From: Dichomitus squalens LYAD-421 SS1
Lineage: Eukaryota > Basidiomycota > Agaricomycetes > Polyporales > Polyporaceae
Direction of reading: 5' to 3'
NCBI RefSeq assembly: GCF_000275845.1
Contig: NW_006766883.1
Span: 1,139,163-1,203,162, forward strand
Length of the DNA: 64,000 nt
The position numbers and the translations under genes are program-made. Positions 30,247 through 35,416 of this stretch are shown piece after piece (position 1 is the first letter of the stretch; each line of letters opens with the position of its first letter). The notes under the pieces were generated by a model. It was not told the DNA's origin, did not search any database, and saw nothing but the letters and a program-made list of their open reading frames with translations.

Positions 30247-31163
30247 ATGTCTGCTGACGACGACTACGACAAGCTCACACCCGAAGAGCGCGAAGCACGC
30301 GATAAGGCAGATCGCGCGCGCGAAGCCGCCGAGCAAGCTGGTGCGATCCTATGCTCTGATCAAATACCCGAACGTACATCGTATCGACATGTCTTTGGAC
30401 AGCGCTGCCCTACAAGTGGACGCAACAGCTAGGCGACGTCGATATCACCGTCCCAGTCCCCAAGGGCACGCGCGCGCGCGACCTCAACGTTGTAATACAG
30501 AAGAAGAAGCTCAGCGTCGGCCTCAAGGGCAAGGAGCCCATCCTGGCCGGAGACCTTTGCAAGGAGGTCAAGCTCGACGATAGTACCTGGACGCTTGGTA
30601 TGCGACGCGGTGTTACATTATATCAAGAGCATGCGCCCCATCTCACCGTGCTCAATAGAGGATCAGGAGACCGTACTCATCCACCTGGAGAAGCTGAACC
30701 AGCAGCAATGGTGGGAGAACGTACTCACGCATCACCCCAAGCTTGATACCACAAAGATCCAGCCCGAGAACAGCAAGCTCAGTGACCTTGATGGGGAGAC
30801 CAGGTGCGCTATGAATGACAATGTGACCCGTGCACCGCTCACCTTCGGATAGGGCTATGGTGGAGAAGATGATGGTGAGCCTCCCACCATTCAAGGTCAG
30901 GCATCGTTCAGTCCACTGATCCTCGCCTTAGTTCGACAACCAGCAGAAGGTAATGCATATATAGTCTTCCCCCAATCGACCCATCTATTGAACAGAACGC
31001 AGCAAATGGGGAAGCCCACGTCGGACGAAATCAAGAAGATGGAGGTTAGTCTTTGACTTCAGTCAGTTCGACGAGGTATTGAACGCTCCCGTCTGTCCAG
31101 ACGCTGAAGAAATTCCAAGAGGCTCACCCGGAACTCGACTTCTCCAAAGCGAAGATCTCATAA
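30247..31163 (+). CDS. nudC: nuclear movement protein NudC
   Basis: A CS (p23-like) domain cochaperone that supports dynein/LIS1-dependent nuclear movement. It is about 190 residues, the short fungal form. The start at 30247 gives [20 protein letters not shown]. After one intron the CS domain begins [19 protein letters not shown] and continues [32 protein letters not shown] and, after another intron, [20 protein letters not shown]. The C-terminus LDGETR joined to AMVEKMM, FDNQQK and [14 protein letters not shown] is cut by short introns with very small exons. It ends [16 protein letters not shown], matching the FSKAK end of animal NudC. The stop at 31163 follows that match. The 3' end converges on the repeat protein at 31549. 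Confidence 0.93.
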
Positions 31164-31548: not shown

Positions 31549-32503
31549 TTAGTTCTTGGCGGCGTTGTTGACAAACGGCACAATCTTGCCGTTCTGCGAC
31601 ATCGAAGGCTGCTCAACGGGCACGGTGTTCACGTCGGCGCGTTTGCCCTTTGCAGCATGGTTGACGAATGGCACGATCTTTCCGTTCTGGGACATGGACG
31701 GCTGCTCAACAGGGACAGTGTTGACATCCGCGCGCTTGCCTTTGCCGGCGGAAGTGTTCACGAAGGGGACGATCTTGCCATTCTGCGACATCGAGGGCTG
31801 CTCGACAGGGACAGTGTTGACGTCGGCACGCTTGCCTTTGCCTGCAGACGTGTTGACGAAGGGGACAATCTTCCCATTCTGCGACATCGAGGGCTGCTCG
31901 ACGGGAACTGTGTTCACGTCGGCGCGCTTGCCCTTCGCGGAGTGGTTGACGAACGGTACAATCTTGCCGTTCTGGGACATCGAGGGCTGTTCAACGGGGA
32001 CAGTGTTGACATCCGCGCGCTTGCCCTTGCCGGCAGCAGTGTTAACGAAGGGGACGATCTTGCCGTTCTGCGACATAGAAGGCTGCTCGACAGGGACGGT
32101 GTTGATGTCGGCGCGCTTAGTCTTGCCAGTGTTCACGAAGGGGACGATCTGGCCGTCCTTTGCCATGGTGGGCTCGCTGTCGGTCACGGAGTTGATTGCG
32201 CGGGACTTGATCGCGCGGGGGTTGACCTTGCCAGTGTTGACAAAGGGCACAATCTTCCCGTTTTGCGACATCGACGGCTGCTCGACAGGAACAGTGTTGA
32301 CATCAGCGCGCCTGTAGGCGGCGATGGTCTCGAACGAGGCCGCCTGGCGGCTCTCGAGTTCGCGCTGCATCCACAGCTTCAGTCCAGTCAGATGGTTCAA
32401 GCAGGAGGAGACAACTTACACGCATCGGCATCGGCATAGGGTGGGCCAGCGCCTGCCCAATGAAGGCGGCCAGGACGGCGACAGAAAGGAGCTTGGAGAA
32501 CAT
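31549..32503 (-). CDS. secreted KEX2-processed tandem repeat precursor (KEP-type)
   Basis: Precursor of 299 residues. Exon 1 (32503-32420) encodes a signal peptide, MFSKLLSVAVLAAFIGQALA, followed by HPMPMPMR. A 55-nt intron (32419-32365) is removed in frame, and one exon encodes the rest. After a short spacer (RELESRQAASFETIAAY) come eight units of 31-32 residues. Six begin with Lys-Arg (the site cut by the Golgi protease KEX2), unit 1 begins with Arg-Arg, and unit 2 is diverged and has only single Arg. The constant part is ADVNTVPVEQPSMSQNGK plus IVPFVN, and a variable Gly/Ala/Lys linker precedes the next KR. There are no cysteines, so disulfide-knotted peptides are excluded. Comparable fungal proteins include Ustilago Rep1 repellents and peptide precursors of cyclic RiPPs. 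No UstY-type tailoring gene lies nearby, which favours a free peptide or surface role. Function unknown. Confidence 0.88.
31556..32320 (-). repeat. eight tandem 93-96 bp peptide-coding units
   Basis: Unit boundaries fall at the Lys-Arg codons near 31,645, 31,736, 31,832, 31,928, 32,021 and 32,117; unit 1 begins near 32,312. Units 3-8 are almost identical in protein but differ at many third codon positions. Unit 2 (near 32,130-32,225) is diverged, keeping DSEPTMAKDGQIVPFVN. Confidence 0.9.
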
Positions 32504-32951: not shown

Positions 32952-35416
32952 ATGTCCGACCCTCGTTTTGCTCGCCTCAAGACAGACCCTCGCTTTCGGC
33001 GCATCAAAAAGGAAAAGAACAGGGTCGTAGTAGACGATCGGTTCAAGGACTTCTTTGACGGGAAAAAGGAGAAGAAAAGCAAAAAGGGGAAACGTAAGCC
33101 GAAACCTCCGGTTTCTGTTCACATCGTCGCTCACACATGCTCGGAAATGATCAGCGCGTGTCGACAAGTATGGCCGCCCCCTCGCGGATGATCACGAACA
33201 CGACAACCTCCGCAGATTCTACCGTCTCGACGATGAGGACGAAGCTCAGCTAGAGCTCAAGCCCGGTCCAGACTACGCTCGCGGAGAGGTCCTCCTCGAG
33301 TCTTCCGACGAGGAAGACGACCGCCTGCCAGACGCACAAAGCGATGATGACAGCGACACCGGTGGCATCATCACCTTGGGAAGGGATGTGACCCAACCCA
33401 TACCTGTGTCCGATGACGCTGAAGTCGACCTCGACGAGGACACATATGCGGACTTGGATGCCCAGGCTGCGGCCTATGCCCAAGCCAACCAGGACGGCGA
33501 TCAGGAGTCGCAGGTCCAGCGCACCCGGCGGATTGCGGTCGTCAATCTTGACTGGGATCACGTACGTGCTATACATCTCTACAAGATTTTTTCGTCCCTC
33601 GTCTCTCCTACGGGCGCACCCGTTGCCTCGGGGTCCAGAGACAATGGCGCATCCAAGAGCACTTCTGGTTCTGTGGCGCTTGGAAAGGTTCTCAGCGTCC
33701 GGGTCTACCCCAGCGAGTTTGGCAAGGAGCGCATGGCCAGGGAAGAGACAGAAGGACCTCCCCCAGAGATCTTCAAGAAAAAGCGCGAATTGGCACCTGA
33801 GGAGATCAACGAGCGCACCGTTTATGACGTCGGCGAGGGCGAGGACTACGACGAGGACGCGCTTCGGAAGTATCAGCTCGAGCGACTACGGTATGTTAGC
33901 ATCCTGCGGTATAGGCGGACTCGCCATTCATGTCTCTGTAGATACTACTACGCTATCGTCGAATGTGATACTGTCGAAGCCGCTTCACATATCTTCAATG
34001 AGCTGGAGGGAACAGAGCTCGAACGCTCCGCCAACGTCTTCGATCTCAGCTTCGTTCCCGACAACATGACCTTTGACGATGAGTTCCGGTGAGTGCGTCT
34101 GATGCCTCGGCATCTATCTATGGTCTCATTCTTAATGTCTCTTACAGTGATGAGGCGAAGGATGACCTTAGCGTCCCATACAAGCCACTCGAGTTCACCA
34201 CAGACGTATGTATGCCAGCCGTCGGAGCTCATGCACGCAGCTGATGGGTTATAACGTGTCCCCAGGCCCTCCGGCATTCCAAAGTCAAGTTGACTTGGGA
34301 TGAAGACGAACCCGAGCGGGCGCTGGTCACCAAGCGCGTCCTCTCGCGCAAGGAGATCGAGGAGAACGACTTCCGCGCCTACATCGCCTCTTCGTCCGAA
34401 TCCGAGTCTGACGATGCCCCCGCCGCGTCAACGGGCAAGGGCAAGAAGGCAGCCAAGGCCGCCGAGCGCGAGAAGCTGCGCGCTTTGCTCCTTGGGGGCG
34501 GCGACGACACGATGCCAGAGGGCTGGGGTACCGGCAAGGGCGGCAAAGATGAGGACGACGTCGATATGGAGATCACGTTCACGCCTGGGCTGAGCGCGGG
34601 CAAGGACGACAAGGACGAGACGACGCTCGAGAAGTACCAGCGGAAGATGAAGGAGAAGAAAAAGAAGCGGAAGGAGGAGATTCTCGAACGGCGACAGGAG
34701 AAGGCCGAGGAGAAGAAAGGGAGCAAGTCTAGCAAGAACCCCCTCGATGACGACTTCTTCAGCGGTGGCAGTGACGAGGAGAGTGCCGAGGAGCTTGCGG
34801 AGGCGGCGACGACAAGCAAGAAGGGAAGAGGAAAGGACAAGAAGGGCAAGGGCAAGAGTAAGGGAGCTGACGACGAAGACCGGCCTGCGCGCGTCGAGTC
34901 CACTGCGGAGGAGCTTGCGTTGTTAGCCGCGTCGGACAAGCCGCATGGGGAAGTCAAGCACTTCGATATGAAGGCCGTCTTGCGTGCGGAGAAGAGGGGC
35001 GGCAAGAAGAAGGGAAAGAAAAGCAAGAAGGGTGCGGACGATGGGGAGAATGAACTTCAGGAAGACTTCTCGATCGACGTCAAGGATGACCGGTTTAAGG
35101 CTGTTATCGAGGATCACACGTTCGCCATCGATCCCACCAATCCTCAGTGCGTTCCACCTCGCTCGTTGTCGCCTCCAAGGGCAGCTGACACTTCTGATAT
35201 AGTTTCAAGAAGACCAAAAGCATGGCTGCTCTTCTGGAGGAGCGTTCTCGCCGGCAACAGGAGAAAGCCTCCGACAATCGTGATTCAACGGTGGTCAAAC
35301 AATTCACTAACGCGGATGGGTCGCAACCAAGCTTGCGGAGTCTGGTTGAGAGCGTCAAGCGCAAGAGCGCAGCAGTGAACACGCCGTCAGTGGGCAAGAG
35401 ACGGAAGATATCATGA
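32952..35416 (+). CDS. ESF1: pre-rRNA processing protein ESF1
   Basis: Nucleolar protein needed for early 18S rRNA processing. About 740 residues. The start at 32952 gives MSDPRFARLKTDPRFRRIKK, the family hallmark, followed by VVVDDRFKDFFDGKKEKK. After an intron comes an acidic region, then IAVVNLDWDHVRAIHLYKIF, which opens the RNA-binding-like domain. KVLSVRVYPSEFGKERMARE, YYYAIVECDTVEAASHIFNE and the segment FDLSFVPDNMTFDDEF complete it. A highly charged Lys/Glu stretch covers 34,400-35,050. The C-terminal NUC153 motif is DRFKAVIEDHTFAIDPTNP, joined over an intron to FKKTKSMAALLEERSRR, and the end GKRRKIS is a basic nuclear signal. Five introns. It belongs with RRP36 at the other end of the window to ribosome biogenesis, but the two are not adjacent. 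Confidence 0.93.

What the first reader, a model, noticed from the sequence alone, without database searches (positions are those of the whole stretch)
31549..32503. Secreted precursor of eight tandem KEX2-releasable peptides, without cysteines
Seen: a signal peptide, an in-frame 55-nt intron, and eight 31-32 residue units, six of them opened by Lys-Arg. Known: fungal KEX2-processed repeat proteins include sexual pheromone-like factors, Ustilago Rep1 repellents and RiPP precursors. Inferred: release of several copies of one peptide ending in IVPFVN plus a short Gly/Ala/Lys tail. I recognise no characterised family with this core, so it may be an undescribed signalling or cell-surface peptide.
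Basis: partly seen in the sequence, partly recalled or inferred. Interest (0 to 1): 0.88.

Follow-up and report, generated by a model that had tools for sequence, protein, structure and literature searches.

The report
Mushroom-class secreted repeat-peptide precursor
A mushroom-class fungus carries a gene for a secreted chain of seven near-identical small peptides; it belongs to a peptide family already seen in many mushrooms, whose job is still unknown.

Summary
In detail: on the minus strand, 32503-31549, two exons around a 55-nt GT-AG intron encode a 299-residue, cysteine-free protein with a signal-like leader and eight units (seven canonical, one degenerate), six opened by Lys-Arg. It is a KEX2-processed repeat protein (KEP), but not of an undescribed family: the core VPVEQPSMSQNGKIVPF aligns without gaps to IPAELPTKSINGNIEPY of Coprinopsis cinerea KEP 497993 (1 of 20,000 shuffles as good), a peptide already detected by mass spectrometry (PMC9769878). 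Searches found 22 relatives, from Polyporus to Serendipita. It probably belongs to Umemura's type G-1, the most widespread KEP type (49 genera). Seen here: six copies encode exactly the same 24-mer, while their codons differ as much as independent draws; the tails vary. So the peptide itself is strongly constrained. A kexin gene is present; UstYa and STE3 matches lie on other contigs. Best explanation: a linear, secreted, ligand-type peptide; receptor and role unknown. Deleting the C. cinerea relative gave no visible phenotype.

The parts
32420..32503 (-). Exon 1: signal-like leader MFSKLLSVAVLAAFIGQALA and start of pro-region HPMPMPMR
   Evidence: aligned with P0002
32365..32419 (-). 55-nt phase-0 GT-AG intron
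   Evidence: junction matched by P0002
31549..32364 (-). Exon 2: rest of pro-region, eight units, stop
32236..32307 (-). Unit 1 core ADVNTVPVEQPSMSQNGKIVPFVN, opened by Arg-Arg
32131..32202 (-). Unit 2, degenerate core (R)AINSVTDSEPTMAKDGQIVPFVN after a single Arg
   Evidence: family-profile score only 11.5 bits, 1 of 2,645 reported shuffles as good
32041..32112 (-). Unit 3 core ADINTVPVEQPSMSQNGKIVPFVN, opened by Lys-Arg
31945..32016 (-). Unit 4 core, opened by Lys-Arg
31852..31923 (-). Unit 5 core, opened by Lys-Arg
31756..31827 (-). Unit 6 core, opened by Lys-Arg
31660..31731 (-). Unit 7 core, opened by Lys-Arg
31567..31638 (-). Unit 8 core, opened by Lys-Arg, followed by NAAKN and stop

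Best explanation
A secreted, probably unfolded precursor of the agaricomycete KEP family typified by C. cinerea KEP 497993. The leader is removed on entry to the ER; in the late Golgi a kexin cuts after the Arg-Arg and Lys-Arg pairs; a KEX1-type carboxypeptidase trims the exposed basic residues; seven near-identical linear peptides ADVNTVPVEQPSMSQNGKIVPFVN plus a variable tail are exported, perhaps trimmed further towards the conserved aromatic residue. The peptide then acts outside the cell as a sequence-specific ligand, sensed by the fungus's own hyphae or by neighbours, through a receptor not yet known. Shown here: gene anatomy, family membership by core sequence, constraint on the peptide, presence of a kexin gene. 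Shown by others for the relative: processing in C. cinerea, and release into the medium when expressed in Pichia. Inferred: processing here, trimming, ligand role, receptor.
For: Anatomy. Gapless core match to the detected peptide of KEP 497993: 1 of 20,000 shuffles as good for the canonical core. 22 relatives by three searches; leader, pro-region and first units (the first 136 residues) match P. arcularius P0002 at 76 of 144 aligned positions. Family profile from 81 distinct cores of 21 relatives, window left out: window core 40.2 bits (best reported shuffle 11.6), C. cinerea peptide 30.7 (13.9). Seven canonical units: pS 0.64, pN 0.006, 222 synonymous against 7 non-synonymous differences over 21 pairs, the 7 all due to the one Ile codon of unit 3 (codon table). 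Six units encode the identical 24-mer, with 10.8 nt differences per pair against 10.55 expected from independent codon draws. Tails vary in residue and length (by eye). Kexin exon on C2, best solved relative Kexin 1ot5, E 6.7e-71, with a P_proprotein match beside it. S10 carboxypeptidases, KEX1's family (recalled), give 44 exon matches. AlphaFold of exon 2: mean pLDDT 45.1, as expected for an unfolded precursor.
Against: No peptide was measured from this fungus. In C. cinerea, deletion of KEP 497993 changed neither growth nor fruiting in axenic culture. There the core-equivalent peptides were found mainly in premature fruiting-body caps and not in the culture supernatant, where a second, shorter peptide was found, so outward signalling by this core is not shown. 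The peptides persisted in the single kex knockouts, read by the authors as redundancy; dependence on one kexin is unproven. No receptor is known. Low AlphaFold confidence from nine sequences does not prove disorder. The cores here begin with Ala, not with the Gln that becomes pyroglutamate in C. cinerea, so the product may be less stable.
Confidence: 0.6

Rival explanations
1. The released peptides are structural or surface-active: they coat hyphae or aerial structures, as Rep1 peptides of Ustilago maydis do.
For: Same kind of precursor; Rep1 peptides (37 aa) are of similar length and control hyphal wall properties (PMC6339444 passages) and form amyloid-like fibrils (PMC9769878 introduction). 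Many copies from one gene suits a bulk product. In C. cinerea the core-equivalent peptide was found in caps, not in the supernatant.
Against: No Rep1 sequence was compared here. The core holds three prolines and no evident amphipathic repeat (by eye). Identity of six 24-mers with randomised codons is stricter than I would expect of a coat (inference).
Confidence: 0.15
2. The peptides act on other organisms: a defence or competition factor against bacteria, fungi or animals, or a signal to a plant partner.
For: Vogt and co-workers favour a role in biotic interaction because deletions had no axenic phenotype. Relatives include Serendipita and Tulasnella proteins, genera with root symbionts (recalled).
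Against: Synthetic KEP peptides of C. cinerea did not inhibit five bacterial strains (which peptides were used is not said in what I read). Defence peptides tend to vary (recalled); here the copies are identical. One Lys per core, so not strongly cationic.
Confidence: 0.15
3. An alpha-factor-like sexual pheromone.
For: Same KEX2 layout. P. arcularius P0002 has Xaa-Pro/Xaa-Ala dipeptides in front of its VNT cores, as STE13 needs; a dipeptidyl peptidase gene lies on C44.
Against: The window's own units lack that signature. STE3-type receptor matches, 23 of 23, are on C32 and Homeobox_KN matches, 2 of 2, on C16 and C3, not on the window's contig C1. No STE2 match, but that search had no positive control. 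Basidiomycete mating pheromones are prenylated a-type.
Confidence: 0.03
4. Precursor of a cyclic dikaritin-type RiPP.
For: Shared precursor layout.
Against: UstYa (DUF3328) matches, 5 of 5, lie on C11 and C27; the core has no Tyr, Trp or Cys; type G-1 has 0 of 64 with DUF3328 nearby; the authors describe the C. cinerea products as linear.
Confidence: 0.03
5. A secreted repeat protein that stays whole, for instance in the wall.
For: Processing has not been shown in this species.
Against: Dibasic pairs between cores are kept in 21 of 22 relatives read (P0006 is mis-predicted); no fold predicted; processing shown for the relative.
Confidence: 0.04

Closest known systems
Coprinopsis cinerea KEP 497993 (Vogt et al. 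2022, PMC9769878)
   Same: KEP layout; core IPAELPTKSINGNIEPY aligns without gaps to VPVEQPSMSQNGKIVPF; at least 13 homologues in other species
   Different: Reported core peptides are 18-20 aa, start with Gln (pyroglutamate) and end at Tyr or one to two residues later; here 24 aa plus tail, starting Ala-Asp-Val-Asn-Thr, with Phe at the aromatic place. Its full sequence was not obtained
Umemura 2020 KEP type #7, label G-1/P-2 (PMC7329392)
   Same: 49 genera in 2 phyla, incl. Coprinopsis, Polyporus, Trametes; 1.03 copies per strain; 0 of 64 with DUF3328 nearby. Its listed Pfam labels include DNA_gyraseA_C, ChlamPMP_M and DUF1648; the window protein, P0002 and P0001 carry these
   Different: Its profile is in a figure not held here, so identity is inferred; the type is described as high in Tyr, the window core has Phe instead
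Polyporus arcularius K466DRAFT_593634 (P0002, partial)
   Same: Leader, pro-region and core: 76 of 144 aligned positions identical
   Different: Xaa-Pro spacers before the cores; core VNTMPVDVPTMSQNGKIVLFNN
Ustilago maydis Rep1
   Same: KEX2-released repeated peptides of similar length
   Different: No sequence relation tested
Ascomycete alpha-pheromone precursors
   Same: Layout
   Different: No Trp or Cys in the core, no STE13 signature in the window units

Membership tests
KEX2-processed repeat proteins (KEPs) | N-terminal signal peptide | tested here: met
   By eye only, and conserved in P0002; no predictor was run
KEX2-processed repeat proteins (KEPs) | Highly similar repeats separated by KEX2 sites (KR, RR, KK) | tested here: met
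   7 of 8 units opened by a dibasic pair
KEX2-processed repeat proteins (KEPs) | Actual release of peptides by kexin | not testable with these tools
   A kexin gene is present; processing shown only for the relative
KEP 497993 family | Core similar to QIPAELPTKSINGNIEPY | tested here: met
   1 of 20,000 shuffles for the canonical core (degenerate unit 2: 200 of 20,000); canonical core and C. cinerea peptide both far above shuffles on one profile
KEP 497993 family | Full-length similarity to KEP 497993 | not tested
   The full sequence was not obtained
Umemura type G-1 (#7) | Match to its published profile | not testable with these tools
   Figure and supplements not held; indirect support only: 3 of the 27 Pfam labels that my 13 scanned proteins drew are on its list
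Umemura type G-1 (#7) | About one copy per genome and no DUF3328 gene nearby | tested here: met
   Searches find only this gene (with a distant relative, finds nothing at all); one search lists no UstYa on contig C1
Alpha-type pheromone precursors | Xaa-Ala/Xaa-Pro dipeptides after the KEX2 site | tested here: not met
   Units read KR-ADVNTV; P0002 does have them
Alpha-type pheromone precursors | STE2-type receptor in the genome | tested here: inconclusive
   no match, but no control rang either
Dikaritin RiPPs | UstYa-type oxidase gene close to the precursor gene | tested here: not met
   5 of 5 matches on C11 and C27
Rep1-type repellents | Sequence relation or amyloid-forming surface activity | not tested
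   No Rep1 sequence was fetched; activity needs the bench

The most novel reading that the evidence does not exclude
The family is an agaricomycete-wide peptide hormone with its own receptor. Each copy in the array is held to an exact sequence because variant peptides would act as antagonists; this leaves the record seen here, randomised codons around an unchanged 24-mer, and it marks the mature peptide as ADVNTV...PFVN. P. arcularius would reach nearly the same N-terminus by STE13-like trimming.
Probability: 0.3. Interest if true: 0.7.

Novelty: new member of a known kind. Interest (0 to 1): 0.38.

Why it matters
KEPs are widespread in fungi and most have no known function. This gene ties a Polyporus-like branch to the conserved agaricomycete KEP whose peptides have been detected by mass spectrometry, and its codon record offers a way to read from DNA alone which residues of such a peptide matter and where it may end. 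That makes the right synthetic peptide easier to choose. If the ligand reading is right, mushrooms share an undescribed peptide signal.

Tried and rejected
Undescribed family: rejected. Alpha-type pheromone and dikaritin: see membership tests. Gene cluster: the gene sits between a CS-domain gene (window 30381-30605; NudC-like by recall) and ESF1 (33376-35378), which I take for housekeeping genes; I scanned 12 reading frames around it with Pfam and saw no biosynthetic gene. Link to mating type: STE3 matches on C32, homeobox matches on C16 and C3; one peptidase M3 gene lies on C1 about 205 kb away, another on C7, and I could not tell whether the first is the MIP gene that often flanks MAT-A (recalled), so loose linkage is not excluded. 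More copies in the genome: none with the window protein or P0001; P0018 found nothing, not even the window gene, so distant paralogues are not excluded. Pfam labels of the window protein (DNA_gyraseA_C, DUF6875, DUF3290, Extensin_1) are all below cut-off and read as chance. Comparisons that did not support the link: degenerate unit 2 and P0001 unit A against the C. cinerea peptide (200 and 1,498 of 20,000 shuffles as good); against the second, 8-residue C. cinerea peptide only the canonical core stands out (24 of 20,000), the other three units gave 10,879, 10,416 and 2,781. Literature on sequence strings: the C. cinerea peptide only in PMC9769878; VPFVN and KIVPF in four papers unrelated by title; PTKSDGNG in none. 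Phrase search 'KEX2-processed repeat' from 2019: 14 papers; I read parts of three (PMC9769878: introduction, discussion, two of three parts of the results, passages; PMC7329392 and PMC6339444: passages) and saw only listings of the other eleven. Other paper searches: listings only. A bacterial promoter scan of the 5' region says nothing for a fungus.

Full report
What is there. The window lies in a 40.3-Mb, 116-contig genome, fungal by its genes. On the minus strand 32503-31549 two exons and a 55-nt phase-0 GT-AG intron encode 299 residues with no Cys, no Trp and one Tyr. The order is: hydrophobic leader, pro-region HPMPMPMRRELESRQAASFETIAAYRR, then eight units. Units 3-8 are opened by Lys-Arg, unit 1 by Arg-Arg; unit 2 is degenerate and follows a single Arg. 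The intron is supported by P. arcularius P0002, which reads straight across the junction.

Relatives. The first protein search gave one hit, P0001 (E up to 1e-3). In both profile searches only the candidates sharing most words were scored, five query rows (P0002, P0003, P0004, P0005, P0007) belong to the third profile, and P0005 and P0006 were not listed again. In 21 of 22 (P0006, mis-predicted, set aside) I could read cores bounded by dibasic pairs. From these 21 I took 87 units, 81 distinct; 66 end the core in Tyr and 21 in Phe. The common pattern, written by eye, is P-x-E-x-P/A-T/S-K/M-S-x-x-G-x-I-V-x-Y/F.

Link to a known family. Vogt et al. 2022 (PMC9769878; sections read) detected pyro-QIPAELPTKSINGNIEPY(K) and pyro-QVPVDEPA from C. 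cinerea KEP 497993. The longer peptides were mainly in premature fruiting-body caps and not in culture supernatant; the short one was in supernatant and mycelium; in Pichia the longer peptide was released into the medium. At least 13 homologues in other species are reported. Deletion removed the peptides and gave no phenotype; the peptides persisted in single kex knockouts. The window core aligns to the longer peptide without gaps, IPAELPTKSINGNIEPY / VPVEQPSMSQNGKIVPF, and 1 of 20,000 shuffles scored as high. P0001, found before that paper was opened, bridges the two: its QEVNTMPEQVPTKSDGNGKIVAYKR unit beats all 20,000 shuffles. Not every unit does (see Tried and rejected). On a profile of the 81 cores the window core scores 40.2 bits and the C. 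cinerea peptide 30.7; the best of the shuffles that hmmsearch reported (2,793 and 2,486 of 3,000) are 11.6 and 13.9. That test is partly circular, because the third protein search was seeded with both sequences; the pairwise test is not.

Umemura 2020 (PMC7329392; passages) sorted 7,878 KEPs into types; type #7, labelled G-1/P-2, has 64 members in 62 strains and 49 genera of 2 phyla, including Coprinopsis, Polyporus, Trametes, Lentinus and Ganoderma, none with a DUF3328 gene nearby. Its listed Pfam labels, presumably chance, include DNA_gyraseA_C, ChlamPMP_M and DUF1648. I scanned 13 proteins (window, P0001-P0008, P0015, P0018, P0020, P0022). They drew 27 labels: window 4, P0001 17, P0002 2, P0003 2, P0008 2, the other eight none. 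Three of the 27 are on the G-1 list: the window's first (DNA_gyraseA_C, just below cut-off), P0002's second (ChlamPMP_M, E 0.36) and P0001's second (DUF1648, above its cut-off). By rough count (27 x 27 / 24,736) about 0.03 would be expected if labels fell at random, which they do not quite. I therefore think that the window gene is a G-1 member; its profile figure was not available, so this is inference.

The codon record. The seven canonical units differ from each other by 222 synonymous but only 7 non-synonymous changes summed over 21 pairs (pS 0.64, pN 0.006); all 7 come from the Ile codon of unit 3. Six units encode exactly ADVNTVPVEQPSMSQNGKIVPFVN. Their mean difference, 10.8 of 72 nt, matches what independent draws from the gene's own codons give (mean 10.55; 60% of 2,000 simulations at or below the observed value). 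So synonymous sites are about randomised, yet no residue differs, while the tails vary in residue and length (by eye; no rate was computed for the tails). Caveats: the codon table comes from the same gene, and degenerate unit 2 was left out of the count. Some pairs three units apart are closer (u3-u6 0.92, u4-u7 0.89, u5-u8 0.88 identity; period 285 scores above period 96), which suggests that a block of three was once duplicated; u5-u6 is also close (0.90). Between species the core does change (P. arcularius VNTMPVDVPTMSQNGKIVLFNN). So the copies seem to have changed together at some time and then been frozen; how, I cannot say.

Where the mature peptide ends. Of 19 relatives with a usable C-terminus (P0002 and P0003 partial and P0006 mis-predicted, left out) 15 end exactly at the aromatic residue; P0001, P0004, P0010 and P0021 do not. 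Many of the 15 are close relatives of one another, so they are not independent. C. cinerea peptides end there or one residue on. The window's last copy runs on as FVNNAAKN, and within the window the frozen stretch includes FVN. So the product may be ...PFVN or be trimmed to ...PF. In P0002 the three complete cores are preceded by Xaa-Pro/Xaa-Ala pairs (APAPA-VNT, SPEPE-VNT, EPIPE-VNT), as is the cut fourth (APA-VNT); P0010 and P0021 show APA-INT. This is the STE13 signature described in PMC6339444 (passages) and points to an N-terminus at or next to VNT.

Machinery and setting. One gene has kexin features: an S8 exon on C2 whose best solved relative is Kexin 1ot5 (E 6.7e-71), with the genome's only listed P_proprotein match beside it. 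Of 17 S8 matches I checked two against solved structures; the strongest, on C60, is of the proteinase K type, so further kexins are not excluded, and Vogt et al. speak of three in agaricomycetes. Dipeptidyl peptidase on C44. UstYa matches on C11 and C27 only. STE3 matches on C32. The neighbours are a CS-domain gene and ESF1. AlphaFold of exon 2 gives no fold (mean pLDDT 45.1, pTM 0.14, 9 sequences).

Judgement. The gene is a new member of a known kind, a KEP with a KEP 497993-type core. No function is known for the family from what I read. I commit to a linear secreted ligand (0.6, processing and ligand role taken together), with outward-acting and surface roles as the main rivals. The codon record is the part that I did not see in the sections and passages read.

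Noticed in passing
P0006 and P0013 (no window coordinates): In P0006 three cores, and in P0013 (Serendipita vermifera) one, are interrupted just after the ...KS by what looks like an unspliced intron; some relatives may carry an intron inside each repeat unit.
   Followed up: no
P0001: Alternates two different cores in one precursor, EDVNTFPVQQASMAPDGVIIPY and QEVNTMPEQVPTKSDGNGKIVAY, so one gene would release two peptides.
   Followed up: partly
window 31556-32317 and 31657-32439, + strand: Long open frames opposite the repeats (253 and 260 aa); they mirror the repeat and are most likely shadows of the minus-strand gene.
   Followed up: no
G000 C32:276041-305343: A dense cluster of STE3-type receptor matches, about eight genes by spacing, probably the pheromone-receptor mating locus.
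   Followed up: no
G000 C27 and C11: Five UstYa (DUF3328) matches, possible dikaritin-type clusters elsewhere in the genome.
   Followed up: no
window 33376-35378, + strand: ESF1 gene (RRM_ESF1 and NUC153 domains), neighbour of the precursor gene.
   Followed up: no
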